In this document: positions 24,899 through 49,870 of the stretch, in pieces | Numbering within the stretch: the stretch's first letter is position 1 | Layout: each line of letters begins with the position of its first letter | NCBI RefSeq assembly: GCF_009724245.1 | Contig: NZ_WNNK01000017.1 | Location: 1 to 64,000, forward strand | Direction: 5' to 3' | Length of the DNA stretch: 64,000 nucleotides | From: Pseudomonas spelaei | Lineage (GTDB): Bacteria > Pseudomonadota > Gammaproteobacteria > Pseudomonadales > Pseudomonadaceae | Program-made: the position numbers and the translations under genes | The notes under the pieces: generated by a model | Databases searched by the model: none | What the model was told of the DNA's origin: nothing | Seen by the model: the letters and a program-made list of their open reading frames with translations, nothing else

Positions 24899-24901
24899 TC
24901 C

Positions 24902-25066
24902 ATGTTCGCTGCAATGGTTATCAGCATGACCCTGATGGTGTCCGCGTTCATCGTCGCCTGGTGGTTCAGTCCCGAACTGCAACGTTGGAGCGAAGCGCCG
25001 AAACAGACAATGCTTGAGCGTGAACGCCGTTACTCGGCCGCAGCGCACACAGCGGGCCATCCTTAA
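24902..25066 (+). CDS. Small CcoQ-like membrane protein
   Basis: A 54-residue protein with one N-terminal transmembrane helix (MVISMTLMVSAFIVAWWF) and a charged C-terminal tail. It lies 3 bp after the oxidase cytochrome gene. Size, topology and location fit the small CcoQ/FixQ subunit or assembly factor of cbb3 oxidases, although the sequence is too short for certainty. It is the last gene before ccmC, and a 96-bp gap follows it. Confidence 0.55.
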   Translation: MFAAMVISMTLMVSAFIVAWWFSPELQRWSEAPKQTMLERERRYSAAAHTAGHP

Positions 25067-25162
25067 GAAAAGTGCTTGGGAGCGCTGTCGTCGAGGCCAG
25101 CGGGGCATGCTCCGGCGGATCTTCGGCGATCGCACTCCGAGCTGTTTTCCAACGGAAAGAGT

Positions 25163-25918
25163 ATGAACTGGACGTGGTTTCACAAGCTTGGCTCGCCCAT
25201 ATGGTTTTACGGCATCAGCGGCAGAATGCTGCCCTGGCTGAGCGTCGCGGCGTTGCTGTTGATCAGCGTTGGCGTGGTCTGGGGCCTGGCCTTCGCGCCG
25301 CCGGACTATCAGCAGGGCAACAGCTTTCGCATCATCTATATCCACGTTCCGGCCGCCATGCTGGCGCAGTCCATCTACGTGATGCTGGCCGTGTGCGGCA
25401 TCGTCGGGCTGGTGTGGAAAATGAAACTGGCCGACGTCGCCCTTCAATGCGCGGCGCCCATCGGTGCCTGGATGACCGCCGTGGCGCTGGTCACCGGGGC
25501 GATCTGGGGCAAGCCGACCTGGGGCTCGTGGTGGGTCTGGGATGCACGCCTGACGTCCATGCTTATCCTGCTGTTCCTGTACTTCGGTCTCATTGCGCTG
25601 GGCAACGCGATCAGCAATCGTGACAGCGCCGCCAAGGCCTGTGCGGTGCTGGCGATCGTCGGCGTGATCAACATCCCGATCATCAAATATTCGGTGGAGT
25701 GGTGGAACACCCTGCACCAGGGCGCGACCTTCACCCTCACCGAAAAACCGGCGATGCCCGCCGAGATGTGGCTGCCATTGCTGCTGACGGCGCTGGGGTT
25801 CTACTGTTTCTTCGGCGCGGTGCTGTTGCTGCGCATGCGTCTTGAAGTGCTCAAGCGCGAAGCCCGGGCCAGTTGGGTGAAAGCGGAAGTGGAAAACAGC
25901 CTGGAGGTCGCTCGATGA
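25163..25918 (+). CDS. ccmC: Heme exporter/transfer protein CcmC
   Basis: CcmC is a six-helix inner-membrane protein that presents heme to CcmE during cytochrome c maturation. This 251-residue copy has the tryptophan-rich heme-binding motif [13 protein letters not shown] and the usual [12 protein letters not shown] start. The in-frame extension upstream (from about 25076) is not typical and lacks family residues. It overlaps ccmD by 4 bp. The normal upstream genes ccmA and ccmB are absent here; the 96-bp leader may hold the breakpoint of a partial ccm operon. Confidence 0.92.
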
Positions 25919-26091
25919 GTTTTGCTTCATTCGGCGACTTCATCGGCATGGGTCATCATGGCCTGTATGTCTGGTCAGCCTATGGCATCTGCCTGGCGGT
26001 ATTGGTCCTCAACGTGGCGGCGCCGATCCTGGCCCGCAAGCGGTATCTGCAACAAGAGGCGCGTCGTCTGCGCCGGGAGAACGGCAAGTGA
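25915..26091 (+). CDS. ccmD: Heme exporter subunit CcmD
   Basis: A 58-residue single-helix protein that stabilises the CcmC-CcmE complex and releases holo-CcmE. It has the typical features: [14 protein letters not shown] before and within the helix, then a basic cytoplasmic tail ([15 protein letters not shown]). It overlaps ccmC and ccmE by 4 bp each. Confidence 0.88.
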
Positions 26092-26543
26092 ATCCGCTGC
26101 GCAAAAAGCGTCTTATCATCATTCTCGCGATCCTGGTCGGGGTCGGCGCTGCCGTCGGCCTGGCCCTGAGCGCCCTGCAGCAGAACATCAACCTGTTTTA
26201 CACACCGACCCAGATCGCCAACGGCGAAGCGCCGCAAGACACGCGCATCCGCGCCGGTGGCATGGTCGAGGCCGGTTCCTTGCAGCGTTCCGGCGACTCG
26301 CTGGACGTGAAATTCGTCGTCACCGATTTCAACAAATCCGTGACCATCACTTATCGCGGCATCCTCCCGGACCTGTTCCGCGAAGGGCAGGGCATCGTCG
26401 CCCTGGGCAAGCTCAACGCCGACGGCGTGGTGGTGGCCGATGAAGTGCTGGCCAAGCACGACGAGAAATACATGCCGCCGGAAGTGACCAAGGCGCTGAA
26501 AGACAGCGGCCAGTCGGCACCCACTCCCGCGAAAGAGGGCTAA
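26088..26543 (+). CDS. ccmE: Cytochrome c maturation heme chaperone CcmE
   Basis: CcmE is a periplasmic heme chaperone that binds heme covalently through a His. This 151-residue protein has an N-terminal anchor, an OB-fold core ([34 protein letters not shown]), and the heme-binding His in [11 protein letters not shown]. The start codon is GTG and overlaps the end of ccmD. Length and motif are normal, so it should be functional. Confidence 0.93.
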
Positions 26544-26546
26544 CTG

Positions 26547-28535: not shown

Positions 28536-29068
28536 AGCGTTGGTTGATGTTGTTGCCACTGGCGATTTTTCTGGTGGTCGCTGTATTCCTTTACCGTGGG
28601 TTGTACCTGGATCCGGCCGAGCTGCCTTCGGCCATGATCAACAAGCCGTTCCCGGAGTTTTCACTGCCGTCGGTGCAGGGTGACAAGACCCTGACCAAGG
28701 CGGACATTTTGGGCAAACCGGCGCTGGTCAATGTCTGGGGCACCTGGTGCATTTCCTGCCGGGTCGAACACCCGGTGTTGAACAAGCTGGCCCAGCAGGG
28801 CGTGGTGATCTACGGCATCAACTACAAGGACGTCAACGCCGATGCCTTGAAGTGGCTGGCGGACTTCCACAACCCGTATGCGCTGGACATTTGTGACGAT
28901 GAAGGCTCGCTGGGCCTGAACCTCGGCGTGTACGGCGCACCGGAAACCTTCTTCGTCGATGCGAAGGGCATCATCCGTGACAAGTTCGTCGGCGTGATCG
29001 ACGAGCAGGTCTGGCGGGAAAAACTGGCAGGCAAGTACCAGGCGCTGGTCGACGAGGCCAAGCCATGA
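28532..29068 (+). CDS. ccmG: Thiol:disulfide interchange protein CcmG/DsbE
   Basis: A 178-residue membrane-anchored thioredoxin-like protein that reduces apocytochrome cysteines or CcmH before heme attachment. The active site is CISC in WGTWCISCRVEHP. The acidic-loop region (NYKDVNADALKWL) and the cis-Pro loop (GAPETFFVDAKG) are present. It overlaps ccmF and ccmH by 4 bp. Confidence 0.93.
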   Translation: MKRWLMLLPLAIFLVVAVFLYRGLYLDPAELPSAMINKPFPEFSLPSVQGDKTLTKADILGKPALVNVWGTWCISCRVEHPVLNKLAQQGVVIYGINYKDVNADALKWLADFHNPYALDICDDEGSLGLNLGVYGAPETFFVDAKGIIRDKFVGVIDEQVWREKLAGKYQALVDEAKP

Positions 29069-31442: not shown

Positions 31443-32456
31443 ATGCGCCCAGTTATATATACAGCCCCCCCGCTGAACCGATTGGTGAGTTACATGACTA
31501 TCGGAGTGACCGGACTGTTAATTTGTGTCCAAGCAACAGCCGGCGAACTGATTTTTCCTTGGTCCAAAACCACCACGCAACCTTTCACAAAATCAACCCT
31601 TATTGTACCGCAGCAACACTCCGTCGGTACTATATTAGACGACGCAGGACTTAACGTCGGATTAGAGCTCATTGATGTCGACTGTGCGATGCAACGTACC
31701 ACCGTGATCAACAACGGGGTTCTTGTACCAGGCTATACAGATGTGTATCAGACGGGGGTCTCCGGCATCGGCGTGAAATATACTCAGACACAGGGCTATG
31801 GTAGTGGTACATGGGATACCGTACCGATCTCATATAGTCTCGCAGCCCCCTTGTCCCCCTCCAAGCTATTTGGAAGTTTCGTCAGGGCTCAACTCGTTAT
31901 TACCGGGGAGATTGGGAGCGGAACCATTACCAGTGTGCCAACGATGACTCAAACCTGGAGCGGGGCTTGTATTACGCCATCAGCAGTCGGGGCGACCTTT
32001 AACTTTCCTGTCAACGCGACAGTCGAAGCCAGTAGCTGCAGGGTGACGACGCCAGCTCTTCATGTGACGCTGCCGGACACCGAGCTACACGAGATACAAC
32101 CGCTCGGAACGACGAAAGGCAACACGACGTTCAACATTGGGCTGGAGTGTCAAAGTGGCTCGTCTGTATACATCACACTGAGCGACGCCAACAACCCGAA
32201 CAACCGCACCGACAACCTGACGCTGAATTCGAGCTCGACAGCACGGGGCATAGCCCTACGGATCCTGAACAGCGATGGTAAAGCAGTTTCCTTTGGTCCG
32301 GAGTCGTCGGTGGCAGGTAATCCGAACCAGTGGCTTGTTGGTCCTTCTTCGGATACCAGCAATGTGCCGCTCACCGTGCAGTATGTGTCGGTGAGGAGCC
32401 CTTTGACAGCAGGCAGTGTATCGGCCGAGGCTACGTTCACGATGAGTTATCAGTAA
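31443..32456 (+). CDS. Second fimbrial adhesin candidate
   Basis: A 337-residue secreted protein with a signal peptide ending near ATAG. The N-terminal region (to about residue 175) has two cysteines and no named motif. The C-terminal half is pilin-like: a Cys at ASSCRVTT, a second at GLECQSGS, and the last strand SAEATFTMSYQ. It follows ccmI by 24 bp, so the two may share the box-5 promoter. Together with the protein at 6374 it gives the island two different tip-adhesin candidates for one usher. The first 20 codons are uncertain; an ATG at 31494 is an alternative start. Confidence 0.62.
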   Translation: MRPVIYTAPPLNRLVSYMTIGVTGLLICVQATAGELIFPWSKTTTQPFTKSTLIVPQQHSVGTILDDAGLNVGLELIDVDCAMQRTTVINNGVLVPGYTDVYQTGVSGIGVKYTQTQGYGSGTWDTVPISYSLAAPLSPSKLFGSFVRAQLVITGEIGSGTITSVPTMTQTWSGACITPSAVGATFNFPVNATVEASSCRVTTPALHVTLPDTELHEIQPLGTTKGNTTFNIGLECQSGSSVYITLSDANNPNNRTDNLTLNSSSTARGIALRILNSDGKAVSFGPESSVAGNPNQWLVGPSSDTSNVPLTVQYVSVRSPLTAGSVSAEATFTMSYQ

Positions 32457-32930: not shown

Positions 32931-33263
32931 TCATGCCTTTGGTTCCGCCTCGTTGAGATCGAGCCGCTTGGCTACCCAGCGTTCGTACAAACCGATGGCG
33001 ACATCTGCGCCGGCCATCGCGGTCAGGCAACCCAAGGCACCCGCTGTCCAGATCGACAGACCCGCGCCGAACAGCAACATCATCGCTGACACACCGCAAA
33101 CGATGCAGGCACCGGACCGAAGTGCGAGGCGGCGCAGTAACGCCCAGCCTCGTGCCCCATCCTTGTCAGCGCGCCACATCTCGCCAGATACACCGCCAAC
33201 CAGGGACAGGGCAATTACCAACCAGATCGGCATCTCTGCCAGTGCCTGTTGCTCGTTCGTCAT
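32931..33263 (-). CDS. Phage holin-like membrane protein
   Basis: A 110-residue protein with an N-terminal helix (MPIWLVIALSLVGGVSGEMW) and two further hydrophobic segments, ending in a charged tail. This resembles small holins of Pseudomonas prophages, which make pores to release endolysin. The start at 33263 (MTNEQQALAEM) is chosen; the longer frame upstream runs through a terminator. No endolysin gene is adjacent, so lysis function is probably lost. Confidence 0.6.
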   Translation of the reverse strand: MTNEQQALAEMPIWLVIALSLVGGVSGEMWRADKDGARGWALLRRLALRSGACIVCGVSAMMLLFGAGLSIWTAGALGCLTAMAGADVAIGLYERWVAKRLDLNEAEPKA

Positions 33264-33280
33264 TACCCTGCCCCTTAAAC

Positions 33281-33307
33281 AAAAAGACCCGGCGCAATGG
33301 CCGGGTC
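33281..33307 (-). terminator. Orphan rho-independent terminator
   Basis: On the minus strand a 7-bp stem, GACCCGG and CCGGGTC, is followed by TTTTTG. It lies just upstream of the holin start, so it must have ended a minus-strand gene that is no longer present to its right. Confidence 0.65.
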
Positions 33308-33508
33308 TGGTGGTGGGTGGCCTGCCGCGCTTTGCGGTCGCACCCATCGAAGATGGCCCCTTTTTACAGGTCGATTCTGGTGGCAGCAAGACCGGTTTAA
33401 TGCCATCCGGTGAATGTGTGGGTGATGCCCGGTGAACGGCTGACGAATGTCGGTGAATATCTCATCCCGGCTGGCTTTTGCTTCTGTTGCTTCAGTGGCG
33501 TCCCATGC

Positions 33509-34252: not shown

Positions 34253-34600
34253 ATGACGAATAGCAGCTTGGAATCCTTGCCTCACCCTGACGTAGACAAG
34301 GTGTCGGAAGACGTTATGGCACATTTCTTAGGCATTTCGTCTAGAGCTCTTGCGACGCGACGCGCACGCAAACAGATCCCCGAAGGGGTCTGGAACAAGC
34401 AAGGACATCGCATCATGTACAGCAAAAGAAGGTACGAGGAATGGCAAGAAGCACAATGGATTTGCCCAGTGGAGTGGAAATCTTCCGCAAATCCCTCCGG
34501 ATTCGTTTTACTTGGAATGGGGTCCGAAGATGCGAAACGCTCCCCTACCCCGCAACGCCGAAAGGCATTAAAGCTGCATCCCAGCTACGCGATCAAGTAA
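34253..34600 (+). CDS. Excisionase-like protein
   Basis: A 115-residue basic protein upstream of and overlapping an integrase gene. The region SEDVMAHFLGISSRALATRRARKQIPEGVWNKQ (read here as several motifs) has the shape of a winged-helix excisionase that chooses recombination direction. KQIPEGVW and YSKRRYEEW are typical. The C-terminal 35 residues overlap the integrase start in another frame and may be less conserved. Confidence 0.6.
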   Translation: MTNSSLESLPHPDVDKVSEDVMAHFLGISSRALATRRARKQIPEGVWNKQGHRIMYSKRRYEEWQEAQWICPVEWKSSANPSGFVLLGMGSEDAKRSPTPQRRKALKLHPSYAIK

Positions 34601-35635
34601 GAAGCCTGATCAAGCTCGGCCTCTTGGATGATACCAAGTACACCGAGCTGTTCCCCGGCTCGGTCGTTCTGCTGAACAGCATTCCGACGTTTCACGAGTA
34701 CGCCCAGCTTTGGCTAGATGGTCGGGTTATTACTACCGGTACGCGCAACAACTACAAAGGCGCGCTCAACCTTTACTGGATTCCGCCTCTGGCACTGATC
34801 CGTCTCGATCAAATCACCCCCACACTCCTACGCCGCATTATTGCGGCCACGGATTGGACATCGCCAGGCGTTCGGCGTAACGCCCTGGTCGAAACTGTCG
34901 ACGATTCTGGAAGCGGCAGTAGCTGAAGAATTGATCAAGAAGAATCCGGCCGCAACGATAGACCGACCCAAGCGATCGCGAAAGGAGATCAGTCCATTCT
35001 CCTTGGACGAAGCGAACCGCATCATTGCCCACCTGTACCAAACAACGCACTGGCCCAGCGGGATCTACGCCGCATTCTTTGAGTTCGCATTCTTCACGGG
35101 GCTTCGGCTGTCGGAGGTCACGGCGTTGCGCTGGGATGCTGTCGACTTAGTGAAACGCCAGGTACATGTCTGCCGAACCGTCGCGCTTGGTGTGGTAGAA
35201 GAGCGCACCAAAACAGGCAAAGACCGGTTCGTACTGCTGAATGAGCGAGCGCTGCACGCGCTTGAGTTCGCCCGCCTATACGCAGCGCGTCGTGCTAACG
35301 GAATCGGCAAGATCAAAACCACGCCCTACGTGTTCCCGCCTTCGAAGAACGGCGAGTACATCAAGCAGACGTCAGACCTTCACAAACAATGGAGGCCAAC
35401 GCTGGAAGCTTTAGCGATACCTTATCGTCCGCCGTACAACTGCCGTCATACTTATGCGACAATATGCTTAATGTCCAACATGAACCCCGCATTCATCGCT
35501 CAGCAGCTTGGCCACAGTGTCCAAATGTTGCTGACGACGTATGCGCGTTGGCTCAACTCAAGCTCAGACTGGGGGGAGCTGGAAAAGCTCCAGATTGGTA
35601 TCAAATCGGTATCAGGCAAAAAAGACCAGCTCTAA
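34441..35635 (+). pseudogene. Phage tyrosine integrase, frameshifted
   Basis: The first part, from ATG 34441, carries an arm-type DNA-binding domain of the DUF3596 kind (DLPSGVEIFRKSLRIRFTW) and a core-binding domain. The frame is lost near 34885: the first frame ends VETVDDSGSGSS, while the other frame continues KLSTILEAAVAEELIKKNPA with the catalytic domain. The second part holds the catalytic residues: Arg in FTGLRLSEVTALRW, the box YNCRHTYATICL, His in QLGHS and Tyr in LLTTYARWL. A single-base change would restore one protein of about 395 residues. The integrase is therefore inactive unless this is a sequencing error or a programmed shift. Confidence 0.75.
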
Positions 35636-36082: not shown

Positions 36083-36256
36083 ATGATTGCAAAAGCCAAA
36101 AAGACCAGCAAGACTGATAATCCGCATATCGAAGCTGCTGAGCGCTTTCGTCAGCTGGCTCAGATTCTGGCTGGGGATCCCGCTGAAGCCAAGGCTTTTC
36201 GCGTAAAAACTGGCGTCTATAACGCCAAAGGCCAGCTCAAAGCTGCCTATCGCTGA
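36083..36256 (+). CDS. Small protein, candidate antitoxin
   Basis: A 57-residue charged protein with a strong Shine-Dalgarno sequence (TAGGAGG, 5 bases before ATG). The N-terminus is Lys-rich (MIAKAKKTSKTD); the middle is helical and acidic (IEAAERFRQLAQILAGDPAE), and the end is basic (NAKGQLKAAYR). Its stop overlaps the start of the next gene (TGATG), an arrangement usual in toxin-antitoxin pairs. I recognise no named antitoxin family. A role as antitoxin is inferred from size and coupling only. Confidence 0.5.
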   Translation: MIAKAKKTSKTDNPHIEAAERFRQLAQILAGDPAEAKAFRVKTGVYNAKGQLKAAYR

Positions 36257-36861
36257 TGTATCAACAGCTCCCCTCATTTGTCCTGGGCTTTCACGGATGT
36301 GATCGCATAACCGGGGAAGCGGTCCTCGCTGGTGAGCATGTTGCGCAGAGCGTCAATGACTATGACTGGCTGGGCGAAGGTTCGTATTTCTGGGAAAACA
36401 GTCCAGAGCGTGCATTGAGCTATGCCAAACACATCAAAAAGCATTCCAAACGAGGAAAAGGAGCGATCAAGGATCCATTTGTCGTAGGCGCCGTCATCGA
36501 TTTGGGCTTATGCCTAAATCTGACGGACGAAGGCGCTCTCGACGAACTGCGAGGCGCTTACGACATTCTGGTCGCTAGTTCCGAAGAAATACCGACGAAT
36601 ATTCCTGGGTTTAATGGCGATCAGGATAACCTTAAGCGTCATCTCGATTGCGCAGTGTTCCAGACCCTGCACCAAGCTCGAAAAGCTGTAGGGCTCCCAG
36701 ATTATGCCTCAATCCGCTCTCCCTTCCTGGAGGGCCCGGAGCTTTACCCAGGCACTTTCTTCCGCAAGCAGACGCACGTACAGCTCTGCATACGTGACAT
36801 GTCCTGCATCAAGGGCTATTTCCTTCCAAGAAACGTTGACGGCTCGCTCTTCCAGCTCTAG
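36256..36861 (+). CDS. Possible ADP-ribosyltransferase-fold protein, candidate toxin
   Basis: A 201-residue cytoplasmic protein, unrecognised by name. The N-terminus reads VLGFHGCDRITGEAVLAGE, then SVNDYDWLGEGSYFWENSPERALSYAK. This spacing resembles H-Y-E type ADP-ribosyltransferases such as DUF3990 proteins: a His-Gly in the first strand (H13), an Asp/Gly-Tyr segment (Y44), and an Ala-rich helix. E47 could be the acidic residue, but a later one may serve instead. No signal peptide is present. It is translationally coupled to a 57-residue gene, and the pair lies in a cargo slot of an ICE, where stabilising toxin-antitoxin modules are frequent. Function is inference. Confidence 0.5.
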   Translation: MYQQLPSFVLGFHGCDRITGEAVLAGEHVAQSVNDYDWLGEGSYFWENSPERALSYAKHIKKHSKRGKGAIKDPFVVGAVIDLGLCLNLTDEGALDELRGAYDILVASSEEIPTNIPGFNGDQDNLKRHLDCAVFQTLHQARKAVGLPDYASIRSPFLEGPELYPGTFFRKQTHVQLCIRDMSCIKGYFLPRNVDGSLFQL

Positions 36862-37026: not shown

Positions 37027-37458
37027 ATGACCGACATCTGCTCCAGCGTCAGTCAATTTTTACACAAGCTTTTGCTTACAAGCCTGCTAGCCGCGTCCAC
37101 TGCTGTCCAAGCCGAAACCTGGGTGATCACCAATCAAGCACATCCGGTATCCGCGCCTGCCGGCGTTCGCACCATTCGTCTCGATGACCAACAACGTCTT
37201 GAAGAACAGCTGACGGCTCAGCTTCCAGCAGACCCACGTCAGGCAGAAGCAACTATTCAACGCTACTTGGCCAGCCCCGCTGGCAAGCGCCTGCAAAGCG
37301 ATCTGGCTCAAGCTCAGCAAGGTGTCACGGACGCCTGGAGTCTGGGTGTGGAAAAACTCCCGGCCGTAGTGGTCGACCGCCGCTACATTGTATATGGCGA
37401 ACCGGACGTAGCTAAAGCCGTCGCGCTGATTGATCGCGCACGGAGTCAGTCACGATGA
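37027..37458 (+). CDS. ICE protein, TIGR03757 (PFL_4709) family
   Basis: A 143-residue secreted protein of the integrating conjugative element transfer system. After the signal peptide (cleavage near VQAET) come WVITNQAHPVSAPAGVRTIRL and the C-terminal thioredoxin-like strand LPAVVVDRRYIVYGEPDVAKA, both typical. It is probably periplasmic and part of the mating-pair machinery. It overlaps the next gene by 4 bp and opens a five-gene transfer operon in the usual order. Its exact role is unknown in the family. Confidence 0.85.
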   Translation: MTDICSSVSQFLHKLLLTSLLAASTAVQAETWVITNQAHPVSAPAGVRTIRLDDQQRLEEQLTAQLPADPRQAEATIQRYLASPAGKRLQSDLAQAQQGVTDAWSLGVEKLPAVVVDRRYIVYGEPDVAKAVALIDRARSQSR

Positions 37459-38396
37459 GACGCTCACGGTTTGCGATCCGCCCACTGTCGCTGGCCATCG
37501 CTTTCAGCCTGTCGTTCAGCGCATCAGCTGCGATCACCTCGGCCGCAATAGTTGCCTCGACCCTTTCACCAACCTGCCTGGAGTACAAGGTCGTCGGCAT
37601 TTGCTATTGGCTGCTCTGCACGCCTTTTGGCTGCAAAGTCAAAACCTCGACCAAGGTTCGCCACTACGTGCCGGACGCCGTGGTTTCGGCATACGCGAAT
37701 ACGGGCTCAAACCCGTGGATAGAGATGTCGCCTCTGGGCACACCGAATCCGGTGGCCCAAGCGGGTAACGACGGCACTACCAATCATGTTGCCGAGAACA
37801 ACATCATCAAATTTAAGGAAGCCGATGTCATTGGCCACCCAGGTGGCGCGGCGCTGAGTCGGTTCGCCAGCGCCTCGGGCTACGTCTGCAAGGGTGCAAC
37901 GTTACCGTTAGTGCCATACTTCCTCAGCACCCTTGACCCCATTGCTTGGCGATACGGCGTTCCGGAGTCCGTATACCCCGAAGCGCTGATTCCGGGTATG
38001 CGGGAAGTCGGTAGCCTGCTCTCAGCAAGTAGTTGGGGAAACGTCTACCCACGTAGCGGCTTCCTTAACCAGACTGACGACTACAAAACGGGCGCAGTTA
38101 TTGCGCAGCGTGCCGGTGACGTGACTACTCGACTTGGCCAGGTTCATGTCTACCTGCCAATGCTTGCCCTCCCCCAGCCCGGTTACTGGCCGGCAGGCGC
38201 GTTGCGCGAAGGTGATGCGTCCACCGGGAAGTGGCAAGAGCTCACCCCGGTCCTCAATCCAACCTGCGCGACCTTCCCCAGTATCGGACCCAAAATCGAT
38301 GCACAAGATGGCGCCTACGCGTGGGCACTTTGGCGCCCGTACTCATGCTGCCAACGCCGCGGGCAAACCTTCCTCGGCAGTACGGACTTCCAATGA
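37455..38396 (+). CDS. ICE protein, TIGR03756 (PFL_4710) family, TraU-like
   Basis: A 313-residue exported protein rich in cysteines (CLEYKVVGICYWLLCTPFGC near the start and PYSCCQRRGQTF at the end). These features are typical of TraU-like mating-pair proteins, whose disulfides need Dsb proteins. The signal peptide ends near FSASAA. It overlaps TIGR03757, and the TIGR03755 gene follows 22 bp later. Length is normal, with no sign of damage. Confidence 0.88.
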   Translation: MRRSRFAIRPLSLAIAFSLSFSASAAITSAAIVASTLSPTCLEYKVVGICYWLLCTPFGCKVKTSTKVRHYVPDAVVSAYANTGSNPWIEMSPLGTPNPVAQAGNDGTTNHVAENNIIKFKEADVIGHPGGAALSRFASASGYVCKGATLPLVPYFLSTLDPIAWRYGVPESVYPEALIPGMREVGSLLSASSWGNVYPRSGFLNQTDDYKTGAVIAQRAGDVTTRLGQVHVYLPMLALPQPGYWPAGALREGDASTGKWQELTPVLNPTCATFPSIGPKIDAQDGAYAWALWRPYSCCQRRGQTFLGSTDFQ

Positions 38397-41713: not shown

Positions 41714-42034
41714 TTAGTCATCTACACGCCTACCGGCTTTGTAGTAACCATAACCTTGCGAGCCATAACCTCGCCCATATTCGACCCGCTTACTTGGCGG
41801 TTCTGAAATACGGCTGCTCAACACCCAGAGCCCGCCACCAAAAGCCAGTGCAAAAACTGCAACGCTGACAATCCCGCTGAGGATATCTGCAGAAAAATAT
41901 AGCAGTACTAATGCCAGGACCAGACGCTTTGCCAAACGCAGTGTGCGGTTCTGACTGAACCAAACGAGACGCACGATCTTACCGAGCCCATAGCCCAAGC
42001 GGCTCGCTATTCGCTGAGAGGTCTGTGCGGTCAT
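41714..42034 (-). CDS. DUF3742 family ICE protein
   Basis: A 106-residue protein with an N-terminal amphipathic part (RIASRLGYGLGKIVRLVW) and two adjoining membrane helices. A Gly/Tyr-rich tail (YGRGYGSQGYGYYKAGRR) follows. DUF3742 proteins occur next to traG in PAPI-1- and ICEclc-type elements, in the opposite direction as here. Function unknown. The start at 42034 matches the family (MTAQTSQRIASRLGYGLGK) rather than the longer frame. Confidence 0.8.
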   Translation of the reverse strand: MTAQTSQRIASRLGYGLGKIVRLVWFSQNRTLRLAKRLVLALVLLYFSADILSGIVSVAVFALAFGGGLWVLSSRISEPPSKRVEYGRGYGSQGYGYYKAGRRVDD

Positions 42035-42358
42035 TGTGCGTCTCCTTCCCGCCCGATCAAAAGGCGATTTGACATTATTTATAATCCTGATTTCGCTCTG
42101 CCGCAAGATCACAGTACAAACCGCTTCGAACCGCAAGCAACTTTCAGCGACAAGGACAACATCCCGGATTGGTGAGCGTTATAAGCTAGGAGACATTGCC
42201 TAGTTATTACTGTCCTGGCTCAGGAATTTCGTCCAAGCAGAATACGCTCAGATGTCCGACCACACCGTCGGATATCAGAAGTCTGCCATCGGTGGGATTA
42301 ATATTGCTTGCACCCACCGTGATGCGGCTACTGACACAGTCACTCGCAGTGTTTCAGT
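42035..42358. other. Gap between DUF3742 and the permease
   Basis: No gene or clear regulatory element is seen. It marks the left edge of the pip cargo inserted in the ICE backbone. Confidence 0.4.
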
Positions 42359-43735
42359 TTAACGCGTCGTCACCTTGAACTCGGTAGAACGGCCGGTAAT
42401 CTTGAAAAACACCACGACAGCGAGCCCTAGAACCGTCCAGCAGGCGCCTCCGACCTTGGCGTATAAGTCGGCGTTGATTAATACATAGCCGATTATGACG
42501 CAGCCAATCAGCGGCACCGCTCCATGTACAATGCGGCGACCGGCATGGCGGTAGTGCCAAATGACTGCAACATGAAGGAGCATGAAAGCCGAAAGCGCTC
42601 CAAAATTGCACATCGATGCAAGCAAATTGATCTGACCAACGAAAAACAGGCCCAGCACTAGGCTCAACCCCGCTACAAGTAAGATCGCCCGTTGCGGCAC
42701 CCGATTAACCGGATGGATCTGCCGTAGAAACTTTGGTAACTGCCGGTCGCGTGCCATCGCAAACAACAGGCGCGAGGTAGCTGCCTGGGCCACCAGAGAG
42801 TTTGCTATAGCGGAACTGATGGCGACGGCCAGCGCAATGACCACCTGCAACCACGGCCCAGCGACTAGGCGACCAATTTCGTAGAAAGCGTTATTGGATG
42901 CATCGGCGTCAGGATACTGGACAAGGTTCGGTTGTAGCAGCGCTGCCAGCCAAGTCTGCAGAATAAACAAAACCGCGACTAAGGCTAAAGACAACAATGT
43001 CGCTCGGCCGACGACGTGACTGCCACCCTGAGTTTCTTCTGAAAGGGTGGAGATGGCGTCGAACCCCAGGAATGACAGGACTGCAACCGACAGGGCACTA
43101 AAAATCATCGGTAAGGAAAACTCATGCGGATTGTATAGCGGCCTCAAGCTCCAGGTAGCACCGTTAACACCTTGATTGATGGCGATACTGGCCAGCACAA
43201 CAAATACAAGCAATACAGAAAGTTGAGCATATAAAAATAGACGACTTGCACGAGCGGTTGTCTGAATGCCTCGCAGATTCACATGGGTGTTCAGTATCAC
43301 AAAAAACACAATCCAAAACGGCTGGGAGATGCTGGGCAAAACGTTAGCCATGGCATTGGCGCCGATGACATAGAGCAACGTAGGCACCAGTAGATAATCA
43401 AGTAAAATCGCCCAGCCGGCGAGAAACCCCAAACTGCTATTCAGACCACGACCAACATACGTATAGACCGAGCCAGACATAGGGAAAGCTCGGGACATTT
43501 GCTGGTAACTTACAGCAGTGAACAGCATGCCGACAAAACCGATCATATAGGTCAAGGGAACCATGCCATGGCTCGCATCGAACACGCCACCGAAGATGGA
43601 GAACGGTGCAATCGGAACCATAAATACCATACCGTAGATCAGCAGATCCGTAACGTTTAGCTGTCGCTTGAATTCCTGCTTATAGCCGAAATGTGCAAGT
43701 TCAGCATCTTGGCTGAGAGTGGAGGTATCAATCAT
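42359..43735 (-). CDS. APC-superfamily amino acid/amine permease
   Basis: A 458-residue inner-membrane transporter with about twelve helices. The first helix region (DLLIYGMVFMVPIAPFSIFG) and the conserved GFDAISTLSEETQGG loop are those of APC permeases near PuuP and YhdG. It would import an amino acid or amine. The ATG at 43735 has GGAG 9 bases upstream; a GTG at 43744 is an unlikely alternative. It is divergent from the LuxR-type gene, and they share a promoter region containing a palindrome. Known pipR loci pair the regulator with a peptidase and uptake genes, so this permease may carry the product or the signal. Confidence 0.82.
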   Translation of the reverse strand: MIDTSTLSQDAELAHFGYKQEFKRQLNVTDLLIYGMVFMVPIAPFSIFGGVFDASHGMVPLTYMIGFVGMLFTAVSYQQMSRAFPMSGSVYTYVGRGLNSSLGFLAGWAILLDYLLVPTLLYVIGANAMANVLPSISQPFWIVFFVILNTHVNLRGIQTTARASRLFLYAQLSVLLVFVVLASIAINQGVNGATWSLRPLYNPHEFSLPMIFSALSVAVLSFLGFDAISTLSEETQGGSHVVGRATLLSLALVAVLFILQTWLAALLQPNLVQYPDADASNNAFYEIGRLVAGPWLQVVIALAVAISSAIANSLVAQAATSRLLFAMARDRQLPKFLRQIHPVNRVPQRAILLVAGLSLVLGLFFVGQINLLASMCNFGALSAFMLLHVAVIWHYRHAGRRIVHGAVPLIGCVIIGYVLINADLYAKVGGACWTVLGLAVVVFFKITGRSTEFKVTTR

Positions 43736-43796
43736 GGCGCGCACTCCAAAAAAAGGCAGGAGCCTTGACTCTAGAATGTGCCGCTTCAGGACTCCA

Positions 43797-43814
43797 CCCT
43801 AAAAAGTAATAGGG
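43797..43814. promoter_or_regulatory. Candidate PipR binding box 1
   Basis: An 18-base imperfect palindrome, CCCTA-N8-TAGGG, lies in the divergent promoter region of permease and regulator. On the minus strand it includes CCTATTACTTT, which recurs as CCTATTATTTT before pipA. Lux boxes are of similar size and symmetry. Confidence 0.5.
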
Positions 43815-43900
43815 CTTTGTCTTACTCTCTGAATAATCACCTTAGTGGCATAGGCTTTGCTCAAATACTTTGAGATTTTTAATCTTTCTGGAGACATCTG

Positions 43901-44665
43901 ATGCGGATCGACTTGATGACGCTCAGCGACGAACTCGCTCGCTTGGCCAGCCTTGATGATTGTGTGGATTATATCCAAACAATGACCGATACGCTCGGTT
44001 TCCAAACACTGATCTATGATTATGTGCCGGTCCCTCTAAGCCATGAAGGAGCCCTGATTAACCCGTCGGTATTCAAGGCCCGCAATGTGCCCAGCGACAT
44101 GCGCGCCTTCTGGTTTGAGCGAGGCTACTGTCAAATAGACCCCGTTCAACAATGCGCTGTGCGTCGGACCGCCCCCTTCGCCTGGTCATATCGTCCCAAC
44201 ACCTGCAGTGTTTTACACGGGTGTTTAGGTGAGCCTTACAAACCAGTGATCGACTACATACTAGATAACGGACTAACCACAGGCTTGACGGTACCGCTGC
44301 ACTTACCGGGAGGCGCTTTTGCCACACTAACCAGTATTATTACAACTACTGAGCGTGATGCCGAGCAGCACGCCCAGACAAGCCTGGGAGATCTGATGCT
44401 ACTCGCGCATGCCTTCCAAACACGAGCGAGTGAGTTATTGGCCCCTACCGAATGCTTTTGCAACCATGCCCACCTGACTCGCCGAGAACGTGAATGCCTA
44501 CAGTACTCAGCTGAGGGATTGACGGCCAAAGGTATTGCAGCAGCCCTCAACCGTTCCCAGGCCACTGTAAACCTGCACTTGAGCAGTGCCATCCGCAAAC
44601 TCGGAGCCCGTAATCGCGTGGAGGCAATAGTGAAAGGATTGCATTACCGCTTGCTGAAATTCTGA
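43901..44665 (+). CDS. pipR: LuxR solo of the plant-responsive PipR/OryR subfamily
   Basis: A 254-residue regulator with an N-terminal autoinducer-binding domain and a C-terminal LuxR helix-turn-helix ([21 protein letters not shown]). In TraR numbering, canonical AHL receptors have W57 and Y61. Here these positions are M67 and W71, while D80, P81 and W95 keep the pattern. The W-to-M and Y-to-W changes define the subfamily that responds to plant-derived compounds rather than AHLs. No luxI gene is present. The next gene encodes a proline iminopeptidase, the neighbour that defines this group. A CTGGAG Shine-Dalgarno precedes the ATG. It is an insertion within ICE transfer genes. Confidence 0.87.
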
Positions 44666-44680
44666 CGCTAATGGCAAAAA

Positions 44681-44697
44681 CCTATTATTTTCACCAG
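44681..44697. promoter_or_regulatory. Candidate PipR binding box 2
   Basis: CCTATTATTTTCACCAG lies in the 94-bp gap between pipR and pipA. It matches the minus-strand form of box 1 at CCTATTA, then TTT, and in flanking CAAA and GTG. Its own symmetry is weak. Confidence 0.42.
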
Positions 44698-44759
44698 TGA
44701 TTCCTTCGGTATTTTCCAAGTTAGCCTGCCCTCATCTATTCACGGCGAGGAACAACATC

Positions 44760-45650
44760 ATGCAGGTTCACGAAGGTTATGCCGATTTTCGCGATTATCG
44801 CACTTGGTACAGGGTCACCGGCGACCTGCACACCGGGCGATTACCCTTGATTGTTGCCCACGGCGGCCCTGGTTGTACCCACGACTATGTGGATAGTTTC
44901 AAGGACCTAGCCGAAACCGGACGGGCAGTGATTCACTACGACCAGCTCGGTAACGGCCGCTCTACCCACTTACCTTCTGCCACCCTCGAGTTTTGGGCCG
45001 TTAGCCTGTTTCTTGAGGAGTTGACCAATCTGGTGAACCATCTAGGCGTCGCTAAATACGCGCTGCTCGGCCAATCCTGGGGCGGTATGCTCAGTGCTGA
45101 GCATGCCGTGCGCCAACCCTCCGCGCTCAAAGCGCTGATCATTGCTAATTCTCCCGCCTCGATGACCTTGTGGCGAGCAGCAGCACAATCGCTACGTGAA
45201 GCACTGCCGGCTGACGTGCAGGCAATACTCAAACGACACGAAGCCACCGGCACCACCGACAGCGTGGAATATCGCTCCGCCTCCGACGTGTACTACGCCC
45301 GCCATGTCTGCCGAGTGCAACCCATTCCGCCAGAGGTAGCTAGAAGCTTCGCGGCAATCGATGATGATCCTACTGTCTACCACGCCATGAACGGCCCCAC
45401 TGAATTCCACGTCATCGGCAGTCTGAGGGACTGGAGCATCGTTGATCGTTTGCCACGCATTCAAATACCTACCCTCTTGATTTCCGGCCATTTCGACGAG
45501 GCCACTCCAGCCACTGTACAGCCGTACGCCGATCTAATTCCAAACGTGCGCTGGCGCATTTTCGAACATTCCAGCCACATGCCTCACATTGAGGAGCGCG
45601 AAGCTTGCATAGCTGAAGTGGCGGCTTTTTTAGAAAAGTGCGAAGAGTAA
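44760..45650 (+). CDS. pipA: Proline iminopeptidase (alpha/beta hydrolase)
   Basis: A 296-residue serine hydrolase that would remove N-terminal proline from peptides. It has the oxyanion motif [10 protein letters not shown], the nucleophile Ser106 in GQSWGGM, the acid region [10 protein letters not shown] and the catalytic His in HSSHMPHIE. No signal peptide is seen, so it acts in the cytoplasm. The start at 44760 follows a GGCGAGGAACAAC leader. In related loci pipA is activated by the LuxR solo in response to plant signals. The enzyme may process imported peptides, perhaps those carried by the divergent permease. A hairpin follows the stop. Confidence 0.85.
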
Positions 45651-45674
45651 AATTTCGAAAGATGTGACCAACGT

Positions 45675-45703
45675 AGGCCTCTTGCATTGAACATGAGAGG
45701 CCT
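45675..45703 (+). terminator. Hairpin after pipA
   Basis: Arms AGGCCTCT and AGAGGCCT are separated by 13 bases, 25 bp after the pipA stop. There is no clear T-run, so it may be a weak terminator. Confidence 0.45.
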
Positions 45704-46221
45704 TGCTGAGTTATAGCCCACGTCGACAGTATTAAGTAGGCTGGTTTCTCTTTTCAAATCAAGGAATCAAACCAAACACCCGCTTCTCGCAAAGAATAGG
45801 GGATGCACTCATGTGGTTTGCCTCAGAAACGCCGAGTTACTTAACCAGATGGAACCTGCACCAGTGCCATGGTGCCCGGCTGCTTCTCGACGCAAGCAAG
45901 TTTTTTATTTTCCTCTCGAAAATGGCCCAAAAGGAAAAGGGGTCGCAAAGACAATGGAAGGGGATCATAAGAGTAAAAGCCTTATCTGAAAGGGCCGCCT
46001 GGCGGCGGAAAAAGGCTGTGGTGGCGCACCGTTGCGACAAACCGAACCACACGCCTGCTACCTCTAAAAAGGCGAATCACCATCGGCTTACCCTGTGGCC
46101 CAAAAACCCGTACCGCGGTGCCATCAAAAAAATACATGCGCGCACCATTACTGTTTTTCCCTTGTGCTTCAAACCCTTGATACTGGAAAAGACCGCCCAT
46201 GAATCCCTCATGGAGCATGCT
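45704..46221. other. Gap before the relaxase gene; possible oriT region
   Basis: An open frame continues upstream from the relaxase gene, but its composition looks non-coding. A short perfect palindrome, GCCGCC-T-GGCGGC, lies at 45994-46006. In ICEs of this type the origin of transfer tends to lie near the relaxase gene, so oriT could be here. No sequence match to a known oriT is claimed. Confidence 0.3.
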
Positions 46222-48054
46222 ATGTTTTCCTTTCTGCGCCGGCCATCCCAGGCAGCGCCCAACCCACCCGATACGCCCAGCGGTGACTACCTGTTACCAC
46301 TGTCCTGTCAGAGGCTGCTGTCACCGCCACGACGTCAGCTGCTTCTGGAGAACATCTGGCAGCGCGCATCGCTATCCCGCGCACAGTTTGTGGAGCTTTA
46401 CCGGCGGCCACTTAAGCGCTACGCAGAGTTGGTCCAGCAGCTCCCTGCCTCGCAGAACCACCACCATGCACACTTGGGCGGCATGCTGGATCACGGACTT
46501 GAAATCGTCGCCTATGCCTTGAAGATCCGACAAACCTACCTGCTCCCCATAGGCGCACCACCAGAGTCTCAATCGGCACAGGCCGAAGCGTGGACTGCCG
46601 CAGCAGCTTATGGCGCGCTAATCCACGACCTCGGCAAGATTGCCGTCGACGTACATGTCGAGCTGGAGGGAGGGAGGACCTGGCACCCTTGGAATGGCCC
46701 GATCAAATGCCCCTATCGTTTTCGTTATGTGAAAGGACGTAACTATCAGCTGCACGGTGCCGCCGCCGCACTGATCTATGCGCAGATCCTCTCCCCGGAA
46801 ATTTTAGACTGGCTCAGTGACTTCCCTGAAGCCTGGTCACAGTTGATCTTCATCTTGGCTGGTCAGTACGAACACGCCGGCATATTGGGTGAGATCGTGA
46901 TCAAGGCTGACCAAGCCTCCGTCGCGCACGAGCTCGGCGGAAATCCAGCCCGCGCACTGTCCGCCCCCAAACAATCTTTGCAGCGGCAATTGGCAGATGG
47001 TTTGCGCTACTTGGTACGTGACACTTTCAAGTTGAATCAGCCCGATGGACCGTCGGATGGATGGCTGACACATGACGCTCTGTGGCTGGTGAGCAAACCC
47101 ATCTCGGACCAGCTACGGGCGTATTTGTTGAACCAGGGGGTTGATGGGATACCCAGTACAAATGCGCCTTTCTTCAACATGCTGCAGGACCAAGGTGTTA
47201 TCCAGACCAATGCCCAGGACAGGGCCATCTGGAAGGCCACGATAGACAACGGTCGAGGCTGGCGAAATACCCTCACCCTACTCAAACTCTCGCCGGCGCT
47301 CATCTGGAACGATCCCAACGACCGGCCTGAGGCTTACTCAGGCACCGTCGAAATGGAGATCAGTGATTCAGAAGACACCGTTCCAGACATCACGCCATTT
47401 ACCACACCCGGTCCCGCAATCAGTCAAGGGGAAGAGCCTGGTGCTACCTCTGTAGTCGCCCCCTTTGTCCAGTCACCTGCGCAGGTCACCGGCGGTGACG
47501 CTGGCAACTTCGATGACTTGCTGGCATTGCTGGGCAACATTAATGAACCGTCACAACCAGAAGATCTGCCGCGCACTCACGCTCACAGCGGCAACGATCA
47601 GGCGCAAGCAATCGTCGAAAAAATTGACCCAATGCCTAGCACCACAACGGAACTAGGTCAGGCATTTATGCAATGGCTCAAAGACGGTATCGCCGCACGC
47701 AAGATCGTGATTAACGACACCAAAGCGCTGGTCCACACAGTGGCGGGCACCGCGATGCTGGTAACCCCCGGTATCTTCAAACGCTACATCCAGGAATTTC
47801 CTCACATAGAGCGGCTGGCCAAAGCGCAGCAGGTGAATGCTTGGCAATTGGTCCAACGCAGTTTCGAAAAACAGAAGCTTCATCAAAAAACGCAAAAGAG
47901 TTTGAACATCTGGACTTGTGATGTCGTTGGGCCTCGGAAATCGAAGCAGCTTAAGGGCTACTTACTTTTGGACCCGCATACGATTTTCCCCGAGCCACCC
48001 TTTGACAACACCAGCTTATCGCTGAGATCCGAAACTATGGAGTCCTCTCAATGA
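46222..48054 (+). CDS. traI: MobH-family relaxase (TraI_2 domain)
   Basis: A 610-residue relaxase that nicks DNA at oriT and starts transfer. The N-terminal TraI_2 domain (to about residue 280) has the HD-hydrolase-like histidine motifs: NHHHAHLGGMLDHGLEIV and LIHDLGKIAVD, with HPWNG and QLHGAAAAL. A low-complexity linker follows, then the TraI_2 C-terminal domain (FMQWLKDGIAARKIVINDTKA). ATG 46222 (MFSFLRRPS) fits the family start; an ATG at 46210 is possible. It overlaps the integrase by 4 bp. Confidence 0.87.
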   Translation: MFSFLRRPSQAAPNPPDTPSGDYLLPLSCQRLLSPPRRQLLLENIWQRASLSRAQFVELYRRPLKRYAELVQQLPASQNHHHAHLGGMLDHGLEIVAYALKIRQTYLLPIGAPPESQSAQAEAWTAAAAYGALIHDLGKIAVDVHVELEGGRTWHPWNGPIKCPYRFRYVKGRNYQLHGAAAALIYAQILSPEILDWLSDFPEAWSQLIFILAGQYEHAGILGEIVIKADQASVAHELGGNPARALSAPKQSLQRQLADGLRYLVRDTFKLNQPDGPSDGWLTHDALWLVSKPISDQLRAYLLNQGVDGIPSTNAPFFNMLQDQGVIQTNAQDRAIWKATIDNGRGWRNTLTLLKLSPALIWNDPNDRPEAYSGTVEMEISDSEDTVPDITPFTTPGPAISQGEEPGATSVVAPFVQSPAQVTGGDAGNFDDLLALLGNINEPSQPEDLPRTHAHSGNDQAQAIVEKIDPMPSTTTELGQAFMQWLKDGIAARKIVINDTKALVHTVAGTAMLVTPGIFKRYIQEFPHIERLAKAQQVNAWQLVQRSFEKQKLHQKTQKSLNIWTCDVVGPRKSKQLKGYLLLDPHTIFPEPPFDNTSLSLRSETMESSQ

Positions 48055-49325
48055 CTATGCCGCTCAAACTCACTGAGGACTACATCCTTGCGCGCGATTT
48101 ACGAGCCGCCAGTGCGAAAATCTACAACGCGTCGACCAAGGCTTTGGTTAAGCATTTTGGAGCGACCCCGATTGAAGAGATCGATCACAGGGCCATACTG
48201 GCATGGCGCAGGGAGTTTCTGACTACGAACAAATCCAAACGTAGCTGGAACACGTATTCGAGTCACCTGCGTACTGTATGGGGGTATGCCATAAAACATG
48301 GCATGTTGACTCATACAGAAATTAACCCGTTTGCAGAAACCTGCGTGACGCCCGCAAAGCGAGCACACAAGACCGTTCAGGGCAGGGCTATCCAGCAAGC
48401 ACGTACGTGGCTCAACGCTCTGGAGGGAGAAGAACGCTGCACTCACGAGCGTAGCCACATAACTCCGGCGTGGTTCTGGCTTGCTGTGTTCGAGATGTTT
48501 TATTACACCGGCATTCGGCTCAATGCCTTATTACACATACGTTACAAAGATGTGGATTGGGACGAGCAAGTGATACTGATACGGGGAGAAACGGAAAAAA
48601 CCCACCGAGAATTCTCAGTCCCCATCATGGAGGGTCTGGCTCCTCACATACAACTCATCCTGGGCAAAGCCGAACGTGCGGGCTTCTGCGCGGACGATCA
48701 GCTGTTCAATGTCAACCGTTTCTCAAGGTACTACCGAGGAAAGGAGATGACTCTGGACCAGGTCGAAGCGATGTACCGCAAACTCACAAAAAAGGTGGGC
48801 GTACGTGTCACCCCGCACCGCTTTCGACATACGTTGGCCACCGATCTGATGAAACTACCAGACCGCAACATCCACCTGACCAAATACCTGCTAAACCATA
48901 CGAACCTCTCGACGACAATGGAATACATCGAAGTCGACTACGACCATATGCGAACCGTTTTGCATGAGCGCAGCGTCGTACAAGGGGCCTTGAAGCGTAT
49001 CAGGCGTGAAGATACGAGTAGCGCCTCAGCCCAGCCAGAACCTTATAGATTAACGAATGACACTCAGAGGCCTATACCAGCGCCCAAAGCGCTGGATCAG
49101 ATCTCAAGGGCCATGGGCTTATCCTGCGGCCAGGAGCTGGAACAGGTATTCAATTATGTAGCGGGTATTTTTGGTCGTCCGCACGAGCCGAAAAGTAGCG
49201 AAGTGCTGCCGCCGGGGGAACTAAACGCTATCACCACCCTGTTGGCTTCATCGTTTAAAAACACAGCGATGAGAACGTCAGGAGGAAAGGTCTATGGGGC
49301 AGGGACAAAAAACGGCCGACGATGA
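48051..49325 (+). CDS. int: ICE tyrosine recombinase (integrase)
   Basis: A 424-residue integrase. The N-terminal core-binding domain (residues about 10-105) precedes the catalytic domain. Catalytic residues seen are Arg in YYTGIRLNALLHI, the HxxR box in TPHRFRHTLAT, His in YLLNHTNLS and Tyr in TTMEYIEVDYDHM. It lies at the right end of the ICE, reads toward the tRNA cluster and overlaps the relaxase by 4 bp. It probably inserts the element at one of the tRNA genes next door. All key residues are intact, so it may be active. Confidence 0.87.
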   Translation: MTMPLKLTEDYILARDLRAASAKIYNASTKALVKHFGATPIEEIDHRAILAWRREFLTTNKSKRSWNTYSSHLRTVWGYAIKHGMLTHTEINPFAETCVTPAKRAHKTVQGRAIQQARTWLNALEGEERCTHERSHITPAWFWLAVFEMFYYTGIRLNALLHIRYKDVDWDEQVILIRGETEKTHREFSVPIMEGLAPHIQLILGKAERAGFCADDQLFNVNRFSRYYRGKEMTLDQVEAMYRKLTKKVGVRVTPHRFRHTLATDLMKLPDRNIHLTKYLLNHTNLSTTMEYIEVDYDHMRTVLHERSVVQGALKRIRREDTSSASAQPEPYRLTNDTQRPIPAPKALDQISRAMGLSCGQELEQVFNYVAGIFGRPHEPKSSEVLPPGELNAITTLLASSFKNTAMRTSGGKVYGAGTKNGRR

Positions 49326-49530: not shown

Positions 49531-49607
49531 TGGTCGGGGTAGGGGGATTCGAACTCCCGACATCCTGCTCCCAAAGCAGGCGCGCTACCGGACTGCGCTA
49601 TACCCCG
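49531..49607 (-). tRNA. tRNA-Pro (TGG anticodon), copy A
   Basis: A 77-base tRNA with an encoded CCA, a 7-bp acceptor stem (CGGGGTA start), an anticodon loop containing TGG and a T arm with GTTCGAATC. Its 3' end faces the ICE integrase, so it is a candidate attachment gene. It differs from copy B by a paired change in the T stem (G-C here, A-T in copy B). Confidence 0.95.
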
Positions 49608-49794
49608 GAATACGCACCAAAAATCAATGCATATTGACATCATGCGGCAGCGAAACTAATGTTTGCTGCAGACGGCTGCATGTCTACGAAGATATCTATG
49701 TAAGCAAAATCTTCAAAAACCGTTCCGCCTTCCTCGATCAGAGCTTTTGCCTCTGACCTTAAGATTCGATTCCAGCGTTAACTGGTCTCAAAAA

Positions 49795-49870
49795 TGGTGG
49801 GTCGTGTGGGATTCGAACCTACGACCAATTGGTTAAAAGCCAACTGCTCTACCAACTGAGCTAACGACCC
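49795..49870 (-). tRNA. tRNA-Lys (TTT anticodon)
   Basis: A 76-base tRNA with encoded CCA, acceptor stem GGGTCGT, and anticodon loop CTTTTAA. From memory, the tRNA-Lys gene near clpB is the PAPI-1 attachment site in P. aeruginosa. Confidence 0.95.

What the first reader, a model, noticed from the sequence alone, without database searches (positions are those of the whole stretch)
42359..45650. Plant-responsive LuxR solo carried as ICE cargo
The regulator has the W57M and Y61W changes (M67, W71) that define the OryR/PipR subfamily and is flanked by pipA and a permease. Finding it inside transfer genes of an ICE suggests that plant sensing spreads by conjugation in this genus.
Basis: partly seen in the sequence, partly recalled or inferred. 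Interest (0 to 1): 0.62.

Follow-up and report, generated by a model that had tools for sequence, protein, structure and literature searches.

The report
Plant-responsive-type regulator riding a mobile element
A bacterial gene set of the kind used to sense plant compounds sits as a clean insert inside a large DNA element built to move between cells, but the same insert was not found in the related elements examined, so one case of carriage is shown and repeated spread is not.

Summary
Permease (42359-43744, -), LuxR solo (43901-44665, +) and proline-iminopeptidase-family hydrolase (ATG probably 44760, stop 45650, +) form a 3.8-kb insert in a PFGI-1/PAPI-1-class ICE, between a TraG_N gene and the MobH relaxase. 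In the five nearest ICEs that point holds 34-56 bp. The ICE sits in tRNA-Lys: a 121-bp repeat on contigs C8 and C97, uninterrupted in four relatives.

The LuxR has M67 and W71. M67 does not define OryR/PipR: 26 of 26 ABC-transporter-linked genus relatives aligned keep W, as does GM79 PipR (PMC4981722). The window LuxR falls in a branch linked to an APC permease, with three chromosome-like trios in the genus and a permease-LuxR pair in a sister genus. An operator box precedes pip clearly; a weaker one lies in the divergent promoter; no stronger one in about 109 kb of ICE.

Spread by conjugation in the genus is not shown: 0 of 16 related ICEs read carry the trio, and the best LuxR relative is 70% identical. 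PAB LuxR systems on plasmids typed conjugative are already in public records. Interest moderate.

The parts
42359..43744 (-). APC-superfamily amino acid/amine permease, divergent from luxR
   Evidence: Pfam AA_permease_2 2.6e-36; 81-84% identical to the permease of 13 other APC-linked PAB loci
43798..43816 (-). candidate PAB box in the permease-luxR intergenic region
   Evidence: 15.2 bits with a matrix trained without window sites, second in the window, but the reversed-window control reaches 17.3; with a six-site matrix it scores 14.0, level with an unrelated site; it rests on its homologous position
43901..44665 (+). PAB/OryR-type LuxR solo, M67 W71 Q83 V116 I120
   Evidence: Pfam Autoind_bind and GerE; alignment of 44 proteins
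44678..44696 (+). PAB box upstream of pip, centre about 70 bp before the ATG at 44760 (hand count)
   Evidence: 24.2 bits against 10.5 for the best window site outside the trio and 17.3 for the reversed-window control
44760..45650 (+). proline iminopeptidase-family hydrolase (pip); annotated ORF from GTG 44697
   Evidence: TIGR01250 262 bits, cut-off 167.65; 7a6g_A 5e-132; S106 D246 H273
42125..45918 (.). inserted cargo segment; 34-56 bp stand at this point in the five nearest ICEs
   Evidence: blastn breakpoints in L077-L081
37455..41679 (+). ICE transfer genes: TIGR03756/TraU, TIGR03755, small gene, TraG_N
   Evidence: colinear in 16 of 16 related ICEs read
41714..42136 (-). small ICE gene bordering the slot
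   Evidence: tblastn match between TraG_N and TraI in 9 of 16 ICEs; 12 of 16 when each locus is searched alone
45811..48054 (+). MobH/TIGR03760 relaxase TraI; homology begins well inside this ORF in most relatives listed, so the true start may lie downstream
48051..49325 (+). tyrosine integrase of the ICE
   Evidence: Pfam Phage_integrase 5.6e-22; next to TraI in 16 of 16 ICEs read
49726..49846 (.). right copy of the ICE-flanking direct repeat, ending inside tRNA-Lys (49795-49870)
   Evidence: 96% identical to C97:217999-218120, last 89 bp identical; uninterrupted site in L109, L110, L111, L113

Best explanation
The trio is a self-contained plant-compound-responsive (PAB/OryR-type) circuit acquired as cargo by a PAPI-1/PFGI-1-class ICE. 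Proposed working: the APC permease imports a plant-derived small molecule, perhaps an amide or amine; the ligand lets the LuxR dimer occupy an AACCTA-type box about 70 bp before the pip ATG and perhaps a related box in the divergent permease/luxR region; pip, and probably the permease, are induced; the hydrolase then destroys or processes the signal, closing a feedback loop as proposed for GM79 PipR. The ICE delivers the circuit to a host with no other PAB LuxR. Shown here: gene content, residues, the pip box, insert borders, ICE integration, and absence of a second close homologue in the genome. Inferred: ligand, import, induction, feedback, and that the ICE still moves.
For: Families and residues. 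The APC-linked LuxRs (window, 3 genus loci, 10 sister-genus loci) form one clade with support 1.000. Matrices trained without window sites put the pip-upstream site first in 64 kb; similar boxes stand in six of six sister-genus loci read. Insert point nearly empty in 5 of 5 nearest ICEs. One TIGR03744 (VirB4-like) and one TIGR03743 (TraD) match, both with open frames, and one relaxase match at 1e-100 in the genome; ParA and DnaB genes at the left end on C97; direct repeat and uninterrupted site. The two other own-genome matches that reach beyond the DNA-binding part are 30% and 24% identical. PipR import and feedback model: PMC4981722, passages.
Against: No ligand or expression data. The divergent-promoter box alone is within chance. 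The 20-site matrix used sites picked with an earlier matrix that included the window's, so it is not fully independent; the six-site matrix has no window site but comes from loci chosen for their likeness to the window. Position 120 is I, not L. The ICE is split over at least three contigs, and a TraU gene 98% identical to the window's, with its upstream neighbour, recurs on C25, so its exact structure is unclear. Some PAB solos gave no response to plant extract or to HEHEAA (PsaR2, PsrR: PMC3909224, PMC7301841, passages), so a plant response cannot be taken for granted.
Confidence: 0.7

Rival explanations
1. Substrate-regulated scavenging: the LuxR senses an amide or peptide nutrient, plant-made or not, and the trio is a small catabolic unit rather than a plant sensor.
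For: A Rhizobium relative of the hydrolase is annotated as L-amino acid amidase. PipR also answers peptone and a tripeptide (PMC4981722, passages). Acetamidase/formamidase genes lie beside PAB loci in L132 and L135.
Against: Reported PAB solos affect plant colonisation or in planta survival (PMC3909224, PMC7301841, passages). A nutrient role and a plant cue do not exclude each other.
Confidence: 0.2
2. Plant sensing controls ICE transfer: the LuxR also switches ICE excision or conjugation genes in planta.
For: The trio sits between transfer genes. Two sites on C25 score 15.0 bits, level with the window's divergent-promoter site (15.2).
Against: No site in about 109 kb of ICE comes near the pip site (24.2): best 15.0 on C25, 9.8 on the C97 tail, 10.5 elsewhere in the window, against 17.3 for a reversed-window control. 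The trio has its own promoter regions and lies in a variable slot.
Confidence: 0.04
3. Inert passenger: acquired but not expressed or not selected in this host.
For: The window's divergent-promoter box is the weakest of the eight trio sites.
Against: All three reading frames are open, the hydrolase triad is kept, and the pip box is strong despite 26-30% DNA divergence from the nearest trios, which fits selection.
Confidence: 0.1
4. Assembly artefact: a chromosomal trio wrongly joined into the ICE.
For: The ICE is assembled in several contigs and C8 begins with IS66 genes. Reads were not available.
Against: The trio is inside a 148,998-base contig with ICE genes on both sides, and the borders fall in a slot that varies among relatives.
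Confidence: 0.03

Closest known systems
Xanthomonas oryR-type loci with an upstream APC-superfamily transporter (PMC4981722, passages)
   Same: APC transporter, LuxR solo with W57M and Y61W, adjacent pip, as the passages describe
   Different: Not compared here by sequence (no named Xanthomonas locus obtained); the window locus is on an ICE in another family of bacteria
PipR system of Pseudomonas sp. GM79 (PMC4981722, passages)
   Same: PAB LuxR, downstream pip, box at about the same distance before pip (-71.5 reported, about -70 here)
   Different: ABC importer and second peptidase aapA; W57 kept; no ICE mentioned in the passages seen
ABC-linked PAB loci on plasmids of Klebsiella variicola, Rahnella, Rhizobium, Pannonibacter
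   Same: PAB LuxR with M67 and W71 plus pip on a replicon; the K. variicola record is typed conjugative
   Different: ABC transporter type; the four LuxRs opened are 44.6-53.6% identical to the window's
PAPI-1 / PFGI-1 class ICE
   Same: TIGR03760 relaxase over cut-off, TIGR03755/03756/03744/03743, tRNA-Lys site, fimbrial cargo with PvrR, RcsC-like and RcsB-like genes
   Different: Carries the LuxR trio and a sulfite dehydrogenase/cytochrome block; the passages of PMC8565334 on PAPI-1 mention no such trio

Membership tests
PAB (OryR-type) LuxR solos | Autoinducer-binding plus LuxR HTH domains | tested here: met
   PF03472 1.8e-26, PF00196 3.6e-17
PAB (OryR-type) LuxR solos | Y61W (TraR numbering; W71 here) | tested here: met
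   W in window and in 44 of 44 aligned
PAB (OryR-type) LuxR solos | W57M (M67 here) | tested here: met
   M in window and 18 of 44 in all; not universal in the subfamily (PMC4981722 for PipR)
PAB (OryR-type) LuxR solos | Specificity patch Q83, V116, L120 | tested here: inconclusive
   Q83 and V116 met; I at 120; L in 28 of 44, V 10, I 4, M 2. Patch from PMC3909224, passages
PAB (OryR-type) LuxR solos | Adjacent pip gene | tested here: met
   TIGR01250 member directly downstream
PAB (OryR-type) LuxR solos | No linked luxI | tested here: met
   one PF00765 match in the genome, on C3
PAB (OryR-type) LuxR solos | Responds to plant compounds, not to AHLs | not testable with these tools
   needs reporter assays
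PipR subtype (ABC-linked) | Linked ABC peptide importer | tested here: not met
   APC permease instead
PFGI-1/PAPI-1 class ICE | Class relaxase and conserved ICE proteins | tested here: met
   TIGR03760, TIGR03755, TIGR03756 over cut-off; TIGR03744, TIGR03743 over cut-off on C25
PFGI-1/PAPI-1 class ICE | Integrated at a tRNA gene with flanking direct repeats and an empty site in relatives | tested here: met
   tRNA-Lys, 121-bp repeat, continuous site in 4 of 4 relatives aligned
PFGI-1/PAPI-1 class ICE | Excises and transfers | not testable with these tools
   needs excision PCR and mating

The most novel reading that the evidence does not exclude
The APC-permease branch is a separate sensing type from the resident ABC/W67 (PipR) type in this genus, with its own import route and probably its own ligand, and it travels as one compact cassette between chromosome sites and ICEs, so that a strain without any plant-compound LuxR gains a complete circuit in one conjugation event.
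Probability: 0.3. Interest if true: 0.6.

Novelty: new variant of a known kind. Interest (0 to 1): 0.42.

Why it matters
If functional, a conjugative element hands over a complete interkingdom sensing circuit, so the ability to respond to a plant compound would be a mobile trait. Within this genus the split between APC-linked (M67) and ABC-linked (W67) LuxRs offers a test of what the transporter and position 57 contribute to ligand choice, and the operator box makes regulons searchable.

Tried and rejected
Spread among ICEs: I read the slot in the 16 other genomes with the relaxases most like this one, of 93 other genomes with a match; 0 of 16 carry the trio; 77 were not read. PAB LuxR and class relaxase on one contig were compared by eye from the listings: only G384 has them within 100 kb, and there the PAB locus lies on the host side, across a ClpB-like ORF (name recalled, no call) and the tRNA array. 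G169 (104 kb apart) also lies on the outer side, judged by the relaxase's strand only. Genomes with the two on different contigs stay unresolved.

Other collections: genome contigs gave 5 loci matching only in the DNA-binding region; viral contigs none; phages two SdiA-annotated hits at 24%; class sample 1 of 369, the window itself. So no named Xanthomonas OryR was aligned here; statements on it come from papers.

Transposition: a 22-nt, 77% direct repeat (42123 and 45882) lies near the insert ends but may be chance; the insert's listed ORFs of 80 aa or more are the trio and overlapping frames. A genome-wide pattern for the box core found one further hit, inside a long reading frame on C55, taken as chance. 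A search for near-perfect 20-bp palindromes at both promoters found nothing in any of the four trios; the box was found by comparing loci by eye. Donor: trio G+C 52.6% against 63-67% in four homologous loci argues against recent transfer from those lineages. No structure was predicted.

Literature: searches (20 of 31 listed; none; 1; 1; 12 of 35 listed) showed no title or abstract start that describes a PAB LuxR on an ICE; the library is open-licence PMC only. PMC13133039 (passages) mentions ICE remnants near a canonical Rhizobium QS system; PMC4338825 (passages) reports some LuxR solos on plasmids.
Full report
Setting. The window is bases 1-64000 of contig C8 (148,998 bases) of a 6.57-Mb genome in 97 contigs.

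The trio. Permease 42359-43744 (-), LuxR 43901-44665 (+) and hydrolase ending at 45650 (+) are open reading frames with Pfam matches AA_permease_2, Autoind_bind plus GerE, and Abhydrolase_1. The hydrolase is above the TIGR01250 cut-off; its start is probably ATG 44760, where three relatives have an ATG. Its best solved relative is 7a6g_A, 5e-132, and S106/D246/H273 are in place for a triad. No NCBIfam model fits the permease over its cut-off, so its substrate is open.

The regulator. M67 and W71 correspond to W57M and Y61W. I aligned 44 LuxRs: window, 29 from a genus sample, 10 from a sister genus, 4 from plasmids. W71, D80, P81, Q83 and V116 are in 44 of 44. M67 is in 18 (window, three genus loci, ten sister-genus loci, four plasmid loci); 26 genus loci have W. 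Position 120 is I in the window and the three closest loci.

Two architectures. All 26 W67 loci have an ABC transporter permease on the far side of luxR and pip on the near side; they are the best 26 such matches, the weaker ones were not fetched. Window, G336, G322 and G101 have the APC permease instead, divergent from luxR, with pip downstream. Ten sister-genus genomes have APC permease plus LuxR but no pip match within the 1.5-kb flanks, nor within 19.5 kb in the six read further. The four plasmid loci are ABC-linked yet M67, so transporter type and residue 67 go together only within Pseudomonadaceae as sampled here (family name inferred). The APC-linked LuxRs form a clade with local support 1.000; the window's place inside it is weakly resolved, 0.655. 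PMC4981722 (passages) states that Xanthomonas oryR homologues have an APC transporter upstream and no linked ABC transporter, so the window type resembles that arrangement; I could not align a named Xanthomonas protein.

Distribution. In a genus sample 94 of 398 genomes have a LuxR match at E <= 1e-30; besides the window only G336, G322 and G101 match at 65-70%, the rest at 52% or less. Of these three, G336 and G322 have no class relaxase match and G101 has one on another contig. In a family sample 11 of 388 match at 1e-79: the window and ten genomes of one sister genus. In a class sample 1 of 369 matches at 1e-40, the window itself. Plasmid records: 152 with a LuxR match at 1e-25, 37 typed conjugative, all below 60% identity; the four I opened (K. 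variicola, Rahnella, Rhizobium, Pannonibacter) are ABC-linked, and of these only K. variicola is typed conjugative.

The ICE. The relaxase is MobH and TIGR03760 (PFGI-1 class), with TIGR03755 and TIGR03756 proteins upstream. The genome has one TIGR03744 (VirB4-like) and one TIGR03743 (TraD) match, both on contig C25, and one relaxase match at 1e-100. A repeat joins C8:49726-49846 and C97:217999-218120, 96% identical with the last 89 bp identical, ending inside tRNA-Lys. Four of four relatives aligned show left and right flanks as one uninterrupted stretch overlapping by that repeat (search). On C97 the ICE side carries ParA, DnaB and DUF2857 proteins. The ICE is therefore spread over at least C97, C25 and C8, about 109 kb held if all of C25 belongs to it. 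C25 repeats a TraU gene (98% identical) and its upstream neighbour (91%), which I cannot place.

The insert. In 16 related ICEs (the top 16 other genomes, fetched) TraU, TIGR03755, TraG_N, TraI and integrase are colinear, and the trio matches in none. In the five closest, DNA homology runs to window 42124 (42111 in L078) and resumes at 45919 or 45920, with 34-56 bp between. Others hold different cargo around this place, for example ParDE-type and MerR/HMA genes in L082, so it is a variable slot. The trio's G+C is 52.6%, a little below the ICE genes measured (54-56%) and well below four homologous loci (63-67%).

Operator boxes. Comparing promoters of the four trios showed a common AACCTA-type site before pip and between permease and luxR. 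A matrix from six sites of the other three trios ranks the window pip site (44678) first at 21.4 bits; the divergent site (43798) scores 14.0, level with an unrelated site, and the reversed window reaches 17.7. A matrix from 20 sites, none from the window, gives 24.2 and 15.2, next 10.5, reversed window 17.3; its sites were picked with a matrix that did include the window's. The pip site is thus clear and the other rests on position. With the first matrix, six of six sister-genus loci read score 21.7-23.2; of 30 ABC-linked loci 9 score over 20 and 21 score 8.8-16.0, where shuffled windows reached 8.5-13.2. The pip site's centre is about 70 bp before ATG 44760 (hand count); GM79 has -71.5 (PMC4981722). 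On C25 and the C97 tail the best scores are 15.0 (two sites) and 9.8, so nothing stands out at transfer genes, though weak sites cannot be excluded.

Chromosomal relatives. G322 and G101 share most of the left flank (main blocks of 86-89%, one of 74%), with a chemotaxis receptor gene next to the trio in G322; G336 has other neighbours. Ten flanking proteins tested from the three are ordinary metabolic, transport or signalling proteins and none is an integrase; islands are not excluded.

Verdict. That the circuit senses a plant compound follows from family membership and is untested here; two relatives gave no response in published assays (PMC3909224, PMC7301841, passages). Spread by conjugation is possible but rests on one case. 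Papers were seen as passages found by term and as listings; none was read whole.

Noticed in passing
window 6374-19685 and 31443-32456: Fimbrial, RcsC-like, RcsB-like and PvrR genes resemble the CupD module of PAPI-1; a block with SorA-like sulfite dehydrogenase, cbb3-type oxidase-like and CcmF/NrfE genes (20054-29068) lies between two fimbrial parts.
   Followed up: partly
window 45919-46015: Conserved stretch (79-81% identity) before the relaxase gene in the five nearest ICEs, starting at the trio's right border; candidate origin of transfer, untested.
   Followed up: no
window 49531-49607: Extra tRNA-Pro copy on the ICE side of the direct repeat, so the element seems to carry a tRNA gene.
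   Followed up: partly
window 34841-35635 and 32931-33389: Part of a second tyrosine integrase, perhaps split from the overlapping frame 34441-34926 (inferred), and a phage holin-family ORF; remnants of another element.
   Followed up: no
L144 12256-13625 (C25) and window 37027-38396: Two-gene stretch with TraU present twice in the genome (98% and 91% identical proteins), suggesting an internal duplication or part of a second ICE.
   Followed up: partly
L120-L129, L134-L139: PAB-type LuxR with APC permease but no adjacent pip match in ten genomes of a sister genus, against the statement that all PAB solos are next to pip.
   Followed up: partly
L132 8768-9682 and L135 7068-8285: Acetamidase/formamidase genes beside PAB loci of both transporter types; may hint at an amide signal.
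   Followed up: no
L130: A Klebsiella variicola plasmid from banana with sheath rot, typed conjugative, carries an ABC-pip-luxR-pip locus.
   Followed up: partly
L147 and L148 (G384): An ABC-type PAB luxR lies about 16 kb from the tRNA array used by an ICE, on the host side.
   Followed up: yes
window 36256-36861: Uncharacterised 201-aa protein beside the transfer genes, no Pfam match.
   Followed up: no
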